Below are positions 23,179 to 29,800 of a stretch of 37,145 bases of DNA, piece by piece. Location: positions 1-37,145 of the forward strand of contig JAEUKZ010000174.1 of NCBI GenBank assembly GCA_016793045.1, written 5' to 3'. Source of the stretch: Alphaproteobacteria bacterium (lineage in GTDB: Bacteria > Pseudomonadota > Alphaproteobacteria > CACIAM-22H2). A model generated the notes under the pieces. It was not told the origin of the DNA. It saw only the letters and a program-made list of their open reading frames with translations, and did no database searches. Numbering within the stretch: position 1 is the stretch's first letter; each line of letters opens with the position of its first letter. A program made the position numbers and the translations under genes.

Positions 23179-23314
23179 GGTCGGGCTCGCGGGCTTGGGG
23201 CGGAACGGCAGCGGGATCGCGGCCGGCAGGGTCGCCGAACTCGGCGGGCCGGACAAGGCGCATTTGCAGCGGCGGGCTCGGCCAAGATCAGCCTTTACCG
23301 CCCGCGGCACGGCT

Positions 23315-23320
23315 GATAAT
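23315..23320 (+). promoter_or_regulatory. Candidate -10 box of asd leader transcript
   Basis: GATAAT matches the -10 consensus in five of six positions. A weak CTTTAC (23293-23298) lies 16 bp upstream. The start site would be near 23327, only about 5 nt before the leader ATG at 23332, which would explain why the leader ORF lacks a ribosome-binding site. Confidence 0.45.
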
Positions 23321-23331
23321 TTCCGCCCGCG

Positions 23332-23406
23332 ATGATGCGCTCGACGAAAACGCCGACGACGAAGACCAAGACCCTCACCGGGGCCTTGCGGGCGTCTGCG
23401 TGCTGA
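23332..23406 (+). CDS. Thr/Lys-rich leader peptide upstream of asd (candidate)
   Basis: A 24-codon ORF, too short for normal gene calling, in the 324-bp gap between gmhA and asd. After MMRS it reads TKTPTTKTKTLT, so 7 of its 24 residues are Thr and 3 are Lys, clustered at 23344-23379, then GALRASAC and TGA. Thr and Lys are both end products of the aspartate pathway served by Asd, so a control codon block is a natural reading. The ORF is followed by competing hairpins (23379-23460). No Shine-Dalgarno sequence is seen, but translation could be nearly leaderless. Composition may still be chance in GC-rich DNA; alignment in relatives would settle it. Confidence 0.6.
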   Translation: MMRSTKTPTTKTKTLTGALRASAC

Positions 23407-23466
23407 ATCCAGCGACATAACGACCCCCGAAAAGGCCCCGCCGAGCAGGACGGGGCCTTTCAGTTT
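23379..23466 (+). promoter_or_regulatory. Candidate transcription attenuator of asd
   Basis: Segment A, CGGGGCCTT (23379-23387, inside the leader ORF), is perfectly complementary to segment B, AAGGCCCCG (23432-23440). Segment B, extended to AAAGGCCCCG from 23431, is also perfectly complementary to segment C, CGGGGCCTTT (23451-23460), giving a 10-bp terminator stem with a 10-nt loop, followed by CAGTTTCT. Thus A:B (antiterminator) and B:C (terminator) exclude each other, as in amino-acid attenuators. Segment A ends 16 nt before the leader stop, which is less usual than placing it after the stop. Confidence 0.6.
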
Positions 23467-23502
23467 CTGGCGCCCGTCTCTTCCGGCCAACAGGAGATGA
23501 CG

Positions 23503-24618
23503 ATGCGCCTCGAACCTCTCAACCGTTCCGCCAATCTCGGCCCCGTCGCCAGTCCCGCCGTCGCTGTTCCGCGCGGGTACGCCGGCCATGGTGCCCCGCT
23601 GGTCGCCATCGTCGGCGCGACCGGCGCTGTCGGCGTCGAGCTGCTGCGCTGTCTCGAACGGCGGCGCTTTCCGCTCTCCGGCCTGCGGCTGCTCGCTTCG
23701 GCGCGGTCGGCCGGGAAGACGATGGAGTTCCGCGGCGCGCCGGTGCCGGTCGAGGAACTCACCGAGGACAGCTTCCGCGGCGTCGGCCTCGCGCTGTTCT
23801 CGGCCGGCAGCGGCATCTCGAAGCACTATGCGCCGATCGCCGCACGCGAAGGGGCGATCGTCGTCGACAACTCATCCGCCTTCCGGATGGATGCGGACGT
23901 CCCGCTGGTTGTGCCGGAGATCAATGCCGATGCGCTCGCCGGCCATCGCGGCATCATCGCCAACCCGAATTGCGCGGCAATCGTCGTCGGCGTGCCGCTG
24001 TGGCCGATCCATCAGGTGAACCCGATCGCCCGGATCATCGTCGCGACCTACCAGGCGGCGTCCGGCGCCGGGGCTGCGGCGATGGCCGAACTCGTCGATT
24101 CGACCCGCGCGCATCTCGAAGGACGCGCCTTCGCGCCCAAGGTGCTGCCGCACCCCTATGCCTTCAATCTCTTCAGCCACAACACGCCGATCGACCCGCG
24201 CACCGGCTACAACGGAGAGGAGAGCAAGGTCATCGCCGAGACGCGCAAGATCTTCGGCGTGCCGGATCTGCGCGTCAGCGCGACGTGCGTACGCGTGCCG
24301 GTGCTGCGCGCCCATTCGGCCGCGGTGACGATCGAATGCGGGCGTGCGATCGCGCCGGATGAGGTGCGGGCGATTCTTGCGAAGGCGCCGGGCGTGAAGC
24401 TCGTCGACGATGCGGCGCGCAACCACTTTCCGATGCCGCTCGATGCCTCCGGCCAGGATGATGTTCTGGTCGGCCGCATCCGTCAGGATGTGAGCGACCC
24501 GAGCGGCCGGTCGATCGCGCTGTTCCTCGCGGGCGACCAGCTCCTCAAGGGGGCGGCGTTGAACGCGGTGCAGATCGCCGAGCTTGTCGGCGCGCCTGCG
24601 GGTCGTGCGCGCGCATAG
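23503..24618 (+). CDS. asd: Aspartate-semialdehyde dehydrogenase
   Basis: A 371-residue enzyme when started at ATG 23503, which has AGGAG at the best spacing of 6; an ATG at 23497 directly touches that ribosome-binding site and is less likely. NADP-binding VAIVGATGAVGVELLRCL, phosphate-binding segments, the catalytic Cys157 in NPNCAAI and the His in RAHSAAV are present, as is the QAASGAG motif. It reduces aspartyl phosphate to aspartate semialdehyde for Lys, Thr, Met and diaminopimelate. About 30 extra N-terminal residues precede the Rossmann start. The leader at 23332-23460 suggests control by attenuation. Confidence 0.95.
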   Translation: MRLEPLNRSANLGPVASPAVAVPRGYAGHGAPLVAIVGATGAVGVELLRCLERRRFPLSGLRLLASARSAGKTMEFRGAPVPVEELTEDSFRGVGLALFSAGSGISKHYAPIAAREGAIVVDNSSAFRMDADVPLVVPEINADALAGHRGIIANPNCAAIVVGVPLWPIHQVNPIARIIVATYQAASGAGAAAMAELVDSTRAHLEGRAFAPKVLPHPYAFNLFSHNTPIDPRTGYNGEESKVIAETRKIFGVPDLRVSATCVRVPVLRAHSAAVTIECGRAIAPDEVRAILAKAPGVKLVDDAARNHFPMPLDASGQDDVLVGRIRQDVSDPSGRSIALFLAGDQLLKGAALNAVQIAELVGAPAGRARA

Positions 24619-26854: not shown

Positions 26855-29800
26855 ATGGGCGTGATCGACGTCACCCGAAGAGGGTTCTTCAAGTTCGGCG
26901 GCACGGCGCTTGCGGGCTCGACGCTCGCGGCGTTGGGGTTCGACCCGCAGCCGGCGCTCGCCCAGGTGCGGCCGTTCAAACTTGCGCGCACGACCGAGAC
27001 GCGCAACACCTGCCCGTACTGCTCGGTGAGCTGCGGCGTGATCATGTACTCGATCGGCGACCGGTCGCGCAACGCGCGCTCCGAGATCATCCATATCGAG
27101 GGCGATCCGGACCATCCGGTCAACCGCGGCACGTTGTGCCCGAAGGGCGCCGGCCTGCTCGACTTCGTACGGTCGCCCACGCGCACGCAGTACCCGATGT
27201 ATCGCGGACCGGGCGAGCGGCAGTTCCGCCGAGTCTCCTGGGACTGGGCGATGGAGCGGATCGCGACCCTGATGAAGGAAGACCGCGACCGCAACTTCAT
27301 CGACCGGATCGACAACGGCACGACCGTCAACCGCTGGCTCTCGACCGGCATGCTGGCGGCCTCGGCGACCACCAATGAAACGGCCTTCCTCACCTACAAG
27401 ATCGTCCGATCTATGGGGATGGTCGTCTTCGACAATCAAGCGAGAGTTTGACACGGACCCACGGTGGCCAGTCTGGCCCCAACGTTCGGTCGCGGCGCGA
27501 TGACGAATTCGTGGACGGATATCCGGAACACGGATCTCGTCCTGATCATGGGCGGCAATGCCGCCGAGGCGCATCCCTGCGGCTTCAAATGGGTCACTGA
27601 AGCGAAGCACCACAACCGGGCAAAGCTGGTCGTCGTCGATCCGCGCTTCACGCGCTCGGCGGCGGTGGCGGATTTCTACTGCCCGATCCGCGCCGGCACC
27701 GACATCGCCTTCCTCGGCGGCGTCATCAAGTACCTGCTCGACAACAACAAGATCCAGGCCGAGTACGTCAAGGCCTACACCAACGCCACGTTCATCGTGC
27801 GCGAAGGCTACGGCTTCCAGGACGGCTTGTTCACCGGCTACAAGCGCGAGGACCGCGACTACGACCGCGCGACCTGGGAGTACGAGTTCGACGAGCAGGG
27901 GATGGCCAAGGTCGACGAGACCATGGAGCATCCGCGCTCGGTCTTCCAGCTGATGAAGCAGCACTACGCGCGGTACACGCCGGAGATGGTGGAGCGCATC
28001 TGCGGCAGCCCGCGCGACAAGTTCCTGCGCGTCTGCGAGATGATCGCGTCGACGAGCGCGCCCGACAAGGCGATGACGTCCATGTACGCGCTCGGCTGGA
28101 CCCAGCATTCGAAGGGCTCGCAGAACATCCGCACGATGGCGATGATCCAGTTGCTGCTCGGCAACATGGGCGTTGCCGGCGGCGGCATGAACGCGCTGCG
28201 CGGCCATTCGAACATCCAGGGCCTCACCGATCTCGGCCTGATGTCGAATCTGATCCCCGGCTATCTCACCTTGCCGACGGATCGCGACCGCGACCTCGAC
28301 ACCTACATGGGCACGAAGGGCTTCCGGCCGATCCGGCCGGGGCAGACGAGCTTCTGGCAGAACTACAAGAAGTTCTTCGTCAGCTTCGCCAAGTCGATGT
28401 ACGGCTCGAATGCCACGGCGGAGAACAGCTGGGCCTACGACTGGCTGCCGAAGCTCGACGTGCAATACGACGTGCTGCGCGCGTTCGAGCGCATGCACCA
28501 GGGGCAGATGAACGGCTATATCTGCCAGGGCTTCAACCCGCTGATGTCCTTCCCCAACCGGGCGAAGATCCGCACCGCGCTGTCGAAGCTCAAGTTCCTC
28601 GTCGTCATGGACCCGCTGCAGACCGAGACGGCGCGGTTCTGGGAGAACCACGGCGAGTACAACGAGATCGACCCGGCGAGCGTGCGCACGGAGGTCTTCG
28701 AACTGCCGACGACCTGCTTCGCGGAGGACGAAGGCTCGCTCACCAACTCCTCGCGCACGCTGCAATGGCACTGGCCGGGGCAGGCGCCGCCGGCGGAGGC
28801 CCGCACCGACATCGACATCATGGCGGACCTCTACATCCGCATCCGCGACAAGTACCGTCGCGACGGCGGGAAGTTCCCCGACGCGATCCAGAACCTGCGC
28901 TGGCCCTATCTCGTGCCGCACGCGCCGAAGCCCGAGGAGATCGCGAAGGAGATCAACGGCTACGCGATCGAGGACGTCAAGGACGCGCAAGGCAACGTCG
29001 TGGTCGCGGCGGGGCGGCAGATGCCGTCCTTCGCATTGCTTACCGACGACGGCAAGACCTCGGCCGGCTGCTGGATCTACACCGGCTGCTACACCGAGGC
29101 CGGCAACATGATGGCGCGCCGCGACAACTCCGACCCGAGCGGCCTCGGCATTTACCAGAACTGGGCATTCTCGTGGCCGGCCAACCGGCGCATTCTCTAC
29201 AACCGTGCCTCGGCGGACCGCCAGGGGCGGCCGTGGAACGCGCGCCGACGGCTGATCGAATGGAACGGACGCGCCTGGACCGGCGTCGACGTGCCCGACT
29301 ACGGGCCGGCGGTGAATCCGTCGGCGAATGTCGGCCCGTTCATCATGAACCCGGAAGGCGTCGGACGCCTGTGGGTGCGCGGCCTGATGCGCGACGGTCC
29401 GTTCCCGGAGCACTACGAGCCGTTCGAGGCGCCGGTGGAGAACGCACTCCATCCGGCGGTCGGGCCCAACCCGGTCGCGCGCGTGTTCCGCGGCGACATG
29501 GAGGTCTTCGGCAATGCACGGGACTTCCCGTACGTCGCCACGACCTATCGTCTCACCGAACACTTCCACTACTGGTCGAAGCACGTCCGCATCAACGCGA
29601 TCCTGCAGCCCGAGATGTTCATCGAAATGGGCGAGGAGCTGGCGCGCGAGAAGGGAATCCGCGCCGGCGACTGGGTGCGGGTCTACAGCAACCGCGGCTA
29701 CGTCAAGGCGAAGGCGGTGGTGACCAAGCGCATGATGCCGCTGCGCATGGGCAATCGGACGGTCCATCAGATCGGCATCCCCATCCACTGGGGCTTCACG

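What the first reader, a model, noticed from the sequence alone, without database searches (positions are those of the whole stretch)
23332..23466. Thr/Lys leader peptide with mutually exclusive hairpins ahead of asd
A 24-codon ORF containing 7 Thr and 3 Lys codons in a block (23344-23379) sits between a GATAAT box and asd. A 9-nt segment at its end (23379-23387) and the 3' arm of the terminator (23451-23459) are identical and both pair perfectly with 23432-23440. This is the logic of amino-acid attenuation, and the amino acids match the branches fed by Asd. I do not recall an attenuator described for asd. Caveats: segment A is inside the ORF, so a ribosome resting at the stop would only partly mask it, and no Shine-Dalgarno is seen, so translation would have to be near-leaderless.
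Basis: partly seen in the sequence, partly recalled or inferred. Interest (0 to 1): 0.85.

Follow-up and report, generated by a model that had tools for sequence, protein, structure and literature searches.

The report
Threonine/lysine attenuator before second asd gene
A tiny gene packed with threonine and lysine codons, followed by competing RNA hairpins, sits in front of a second copy of a gene needed to make threonine and lysine; the arrangement is conserved in many proteobacteria and very probably switches the gene on when those amino acids run short.

Summary
The 24-codon ORF (23332-23406; 7 Thr, 3 Lys) and the three matching segments are where stated. In 61 of 80 related loci (Bradyrhizobium, Reyranella, Parvibaculum, Steroidobacter, many MAGs) the asd ortholog carries the same element: a promoter whose -10 box ends about 7-10 nt before the leader ATG (near-leaderless), a ~24-codon Thr/Lys ORF and a GC-rich terminator. 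All three helices of a classical attenuator (1:2, 2:3, 3:4) co-vary between lineages; control pairings do not. A covariance model finds the same scaffold before a short thrS paralog, also in the window's own genome; those leaders are rich in Thr with little Lys, so codon content follows the downstream gene. This asd is a second copy; the genome's other asd has no such element. No Rfam family matches. Prior art: Sinorhizobium meliloti SEP5, a translated sORF with 6 Thr and 3 Lys codons in the 5'UTR of an 'aspartate dehydrogenase' gene, proposed in 2023 as a possible leader peptide. Nothing experimental is shown here. New member of a known kind.

The parts
23294..23322 (+). Promoter: -35 TTTACC 23294-23299, 17-nt spacer, -10 TAATTT 23317-23322
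   Evidence: TT[GT]AC + 17 nt + TA-rich box in 58 of 64 relatives, box usually ending 7-10 nt before the leader ATG
23332..23406 (+). Leader ORF MMRSTKTPTTKTKTLTGALRASAC*, near-leaderless
   Evidence: Thr/Lys ORF present in 61 of 80 orthologous loci
23344..23379 (+). Control codons: 7 Thr and 3 Lys within 12 codons
   Evidence: composition follows the downstream gene
23367..23388 (+). 1:2 hairpin (CAAGaCCCU-cacc-GGGGcCUUG): control codons paired with segment A
   Evidence: Fold; 1:2 co-varies across 41 leaders; weaker in the window itself
23379..23392 (+).
   Evidence: 2:3 co-variation 0 of 20000 permutations
23427..23440 (+). Segment 3: pairs with segment 2 (antiterminator) or segment 4 (terminator)
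23431..23466 (+). 3:4 terminator hairpin (about -22.6 kcal/mol) and imperfect U-tract TTTCAGTTT
   Evidence: family median 7 U in the 9 nt after the stem; not flagged by the simple scan
23497..24618 (+). asd, second copy (aspartate-semialdehyde dehydrogenase, 373 aa from the first ATG)
   Evidence: NCBIfam PRK14874 and TIGR01296 above cut-off; other asd of the genome at C242, 44% identical

Best explanation
A ribosome-mediated transcription attenuator of the classical four-segment type controls a second, probably inducible asd gene. RNA starts at or a few nt before the leader AUG, and a ribosome translates the Thr/Lys ORF behind RNA polymerase. With Thr- and Lys-tRNA charged, the ribosome runs through the control codons and segment 2 to the stop; 2:3 cannot form, 1:2 can re-form after release, and the 3:4 terminator stops transcription. 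When Thr or Lys is short, the ribosome stalls on the control codons and blocks segment 1; segment 2 pairs with segment 3, the terminator cannot form and asd is transcribed. Shown here by comparative sequence: the ORF, the promoter position, three co-varying helices, and the match between codons and gene. Inferred: start site, leader translation, termination and response to starvation.
For: Leader ORF in 61 of 80 orthologous loci. All three helices co-vary, controls 1:3, 1:4 and reversed 2:3 do not; 1:2 arm made of the last Thr/Lys codons, better than codon-shuffled controls in 40 of 41 leaders. Conserved promoter right before the leader ATG. asd leaders average 5.8 Thr and 2.6 Lys, thrS2 leaders 5.6 Thr and 0.7 Lys in the same scaffold. 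In the window 1:2 plus 3:4 is about as stable as 2:3. Leaderless attenuator ORFs are translated in S. meliloti, and a Thr/Lys sORF before a related gene is translated there (PMC10117765).
Against: No transcript, ribosome or starvation data. In the window the contiguous 1:2 stem is no better than codon-shuffled controls (4 bp, p 0.53) and is convincing only with one mismatch allowed. The U-tract is imperfect and the simple scans found neither promoter nor terminator. Whole-leader folding is not exceptional (z -1.4). 19 of the 80 orthologs lack a recognisable element.
Confidence: 0.88

Rival explanations
1. Only threonine is sensed; the Lys codons serve mainly the 1:2 arm or are incidental.
For: Lys often lies in the 1:2 arm (Lys-Pro, Lys-Lys-Pro). 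thrS2 leaders work with Thr alone in the same scaffold.
Against: Lys is kept in asd leaders (mean 2.6) and nearly absent from thrS2 leaders (0.7), which have the same arms; some asd leaders have more Lys than Thr (e.g. MFPKKRTITLKKPGGGALGDCAR); both are end products of the Asd branch.
Confidence: 0.2
2. A plain intrinsic terminator or constitutive leader, with the Thr/Lys ORF fortuitous in GC-rich DNA.
For: The family shares a strong terminator stem, and three loci keep promoter and terminator without an ORF (L047, L082, L119).
Against: Thr/Lys content far above chance and kept in 61 of 80 loci; 1:2 and 2:3, not only 3:4, co-vary; codon content changes with the gene.
Confidence: 0.04
3. The leader acts mainly after transcription: stalling exposes or hides the asd ribosome-binding site, or the released leader RNA or peptide acts in trans.
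For: Some members including the window can fold a hairpin over the asd Shine-Dalgarno (window z -2.1); S. meliloti trpL RNA and peptide act in trans (PMC7298713).
Against: That hairpin is not a family feature (mean z -0.47), whereas terminator and antiterminator are.
Confidence: 0.08

Closest known systems
S. meliloti SEP5 (PMC10117765, 2023)
   Same: Small ORF with a cluster of 6 Thr and 3 Lys codons in the 5'UTR of an 'aspartate dehydrogenase' gene; translated; suggested as a leader peptide
   Different: Cluster near the 3' end of the ORF, reported as conserved only in Sinorhizobium, no RNA structure described in the passages read; its sequence was not examined here
S. meliloti trpL attenuator (rnTrpL / peTrpL)
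   Same: Alphaproteobacterial ribosome-dependent attenuator with a leaderless ORF and mutually exclusive structures (PMC10117765, PMC7298713)
   Different: Senses Trp, controls trpE(G), 14-aa peptide
Enterobacterial threonine operon leader (Rfam Thr_leader)
   Same: Thr-rich leader peptide with terminator/antiterminator (own knowledge)
   Different: Controls thrABC and senses Thr and Ile (own knowledge); no Rfam match here
Late-cluster Thr/Lys leaders on canonical asd in family f38
   Same: Thr/Lys codons and terminator before an asd
   Different: Distant Asd clade, cluster at the end of the ORF, different terminator sequence

Membership tests
Ribosome-mediated amino-acid attenuator | Leader ORF with a cluster of codons for the end-product amino acids | tested here: met
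   7 Thr and 3 Lys in the window; conserved
Ribosome-mediated amino-acid attenuator | Mutually exclusive antiterminator (2:3) and terminator (3:4) | tested here: met
   Both co-vary, 0 of 20000 permutations; controls negative
Ribosome-mediated amino-acid attenuator | 1:2 hairpin whose 5' arm lies in the control codons | tested here: met
   Family level; weak in the window alone
Ribosome-mediated amino-acid attenuator | Intrinsic terminator with U-tract | tested here: inconclusive
   Strong stem, U-tract TTTCAGTTT; not flagged by the scan; family median 7 U of 9
Ribosome-mediated amino-acid attenuator | Leader is translated and termination responds to starvation | not testable with these tools
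   Needs RNA-seq, Ribo-seq or reporters
Rfam Thr_leader | Match to the covariance model | tested here: not met
   No match at gathering or E<=5
T-box or other riboswitch | Match to any Rfam riboswitch model | tested here: not met
   No match in the region
SEP5-type asd leader | Homologous leader on the same asd clade | not tested
   SEP5 sequence not examined; look-alikes in family f38 lie in a separate Asd clade

The most novel reading that the evidence does not exclude
One attenuator scaffold (near-leaderless ~25-codon ORF, 1:2/2:3/3:4 switch, shared GC-rich terminator) has spread within and between proteobacterial genomes and been recoded for different inputs: Thr+Lys before a second asd, Thr before a second thrS, possibly Lys before dapA, and leaders without amino-acid runs before acetyltransferase (including AAC(3)), ABC-transporter and DUF1127 genes, where ribosome stalling by an antibiotic or a nascent peptide could be the signal.
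Probability: 0.45. Interest if true: 0.75.

Novelty: new member of a known kind. Interest (0 to 1): 0.62.

Why it matters
It indicates that the branch point to Lys, Thr and Met in a wide set of alpha- and some gammaproteobacteria has its own attenuator on a dedicated second asd, and that the window's genome also carries a second thrS under a Thr attenuator. It turns a one-genus suggestion (SEP5) into a testable family with defined RNA segments, and offers a natural pair (Thr+Lys against Thr only) for testing how leader codons set specificity.

Tried and rejected
Rfam at gathering and relaxed thresholds: no attenuator family at this place. Simple promoter and terminator scans: nothing in this region, judged insensitive here. 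Synonymous against other changes in the control block: 124 synonymous to 104 non-synonymous codon differences over all pairs, 30 to 46 in 20 independent pairs, against about 26% synonymous expected; enriched but not decisive. A hairpin hiding the asd Shine-Dalgarno: present in a subset only. The count of 178 of 385 genomes at E<=0.01 was not used as a count of elements, because many weak hits match only the terminator. Papers on asd or thrS attenuation: only SEP5 was found; the library is open-access only, so Vitreschak et al. 2004 could not be read. A lead in a Caulobacter paper was a false match: there 'aSD' means anti-Shine-Dalgarno.

Full report
Observation. The ORF 23332-23406 encodes MMRSTKTPTTKTKTLTGALRASAC. 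It is by far the most Thr/Lys-rich of 354 short ORFs in the window (10 of 13 residues; next best 6), and 30 shuffled windows gave a maximum of 8. Segment A, its copy in the terminator and their shared complement are at the stated positions.

The gene. The downstream protein is an aspartate-semialdehyde dehydrogenase above NCBIfam cut-offs. The genome holds a second asd, 44% identical, on another contig, with no Thr/Lys leader seen before it. In a tree of 114 Asd proteins the window's protein lies in a clade of 63 rows (support 95/96), of which 54 carry the leader and 9 do not; the other asd of this genome lies in a distant clade.

Conservation. A scan of one genome per species returned 80 close relatives. 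By inspection of the ranked ORF lists, 60 have a Thr/Lys ORF with a terminator behind it, and one more (L078, GTG start) was found with a covariance model. Examples: MFTTTKRTTKTTTAFGARGGVRA in Bradyrhizobium, MMRFATKTTTTKTTTFGGPARTCA in Reyranella, MFPKKRTITLKKPGGGALGDCAR in gammaproteobacterial MAGs. Some record titles name unlikely hosts (Marinimicrobia, Frankia) and may be misassigned. Three loci without the ORF (L047, L082, L119) keep promoter and terminator next to each other, which looks like loss of the leader.

Promoter. In 58 of 64 relatives TT[GT]AC is followed, after a 17-nt spacer, by a TA-rich box that in 51 cases ends 7-10 nt before the leader ATG; only 13 of 64 have even an AGG, GGA or GAG upstream. 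RNA would therefore start within a few nucleotides of the ATG. A leaderless attenuator ORF is known from S. meliloti trpL (PMC10117765).

RNA switch. Swapping segments among 41 leaders shows that native partners fit better than expected for 1:2, 2:3 and 3:4 (0 of 20000 permutations each), but not for the control pairs 1:3, 1:4 or reversed 2:3. The result holds with 25 and 18 thinned sequences, most weakly for 1:2 at 18 (p about 0.01). A ribosome stalled on these codons would free segment 2. In the window 1:2 is about -8.9 and 3:4 about -22.6 kcal/mol, and the 2:3 duplex about -31 before loop cost, so the alternatives are closely balanced.

Codons follow the gene. A covariance model built from 36 asd leaders was run over 385 genomes of the class and 398 of the phylum. 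Strong hits lie before asd and before a short (about 400 aa) threonyl-tRNA synthetase paralog, including one at G000:C412 in the window's own genome, where a full-length thrS lies on the same contig. asd leaders average 5.8 Thr and 2.6 Lys (24 leaders); thrS2 leaders average 5.6 Thr and 0.7 Lys (18 leaders, one of them counted in two searches). The model was trained on asd leaders and so favours Thr/Lys-rich hits, but that bias cannot explain the shortage of Lys before thrS. Further hits before dapA, ABC, acetyltransferase, AAC(3) and DUF1127 genes share stop context and terminator but mostly lack amino-acid runs; they are leads, not results.

Mechanism. The best reading is classical attenuation. 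Start site, leader translation, termination and starvation response are inferred, not shown.

Novelty. No Rfam family matches. The nearest prior statement found is SEP5 in S. meliloti: six Thr and three Lys codons in the 5'UTR of an 'aspartate dehydrogenase' gene, shown to be translated and suggested as a leader peptide, reported as conserved only in Sinorhizobium. A similar late-cluster Thr/Lys leader occurs on the canonical asd in 11 of 16 genomes of another alphaproteobacterial family, in a separate Asd clade, so Thr/Lys leaders on asd seem to have arisen at least twice. I file the window element as a new, well-supported member of a known kind.

Noticed in passing
L150 (G000:C412:9257-9397) and thrS2 loci L130, L134, L135, L137-L139, L143-L145, L148, L149, L199, L202, L206, L207, L216, L218: The same scaffold with a Thr-rich, Lys-poor leader (e.g. 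CTTTTTTTRFGG) before a short thrS paralog; the window's genome has a second, full-length thrS on the same contig.
   Followed up: partly
L028, L175-L184: A different Thr/Lys leader with the cluster at the end of the ORF, before the canonical asd in 11 of 16 genomes of one alphaproteobacterial family; resembles S. meliloti SEP5.
   Followed up: partly
L140, L136, L151, L155, L147, L153, L154, L163, L164: Scaffold-like leaders without amino-acid runs before an aminoglycoside 3-N-acetyltransferase, GNAT-type acetyltransferases and ABC-transporter ATPases; three ABC leaders share a peptide like MFASPKHVCVTLMEA.
   Followed up: partly
L157, L159, L212-L215, L217, L219: A conserved leader ending ...NHMTRFGWAVGGVAR* before a DUF1127 gene, mostly in the family that includes Bradyrhizobium.
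   Followed up: no
L204, L205, L210: Thr-only leaders (TTTTT) before a gene that looks like an isochorismatase-type hydrolase, in genomes of another class.
   Followed up: no
L152 (G000:C228:3754-3843), L158, L160, L167: Related terminator and stop context before a dapA-like gene; two of the leaders contain 2-3 Lys codons.
   Followed up: no
window 23476-23500: A hairpin over the asd Shine-Dalgarno (CGTCTC...GGAGATGACG) that is present in some members of the family only.
   Followed up: partly
window 27446-27504: SECIS_3 selenocysteine insertion element (Rfam RF01989, 80 bits), at the end of a reading frame that looks like a formate dehydrogenase subunit.
   Followed up: no
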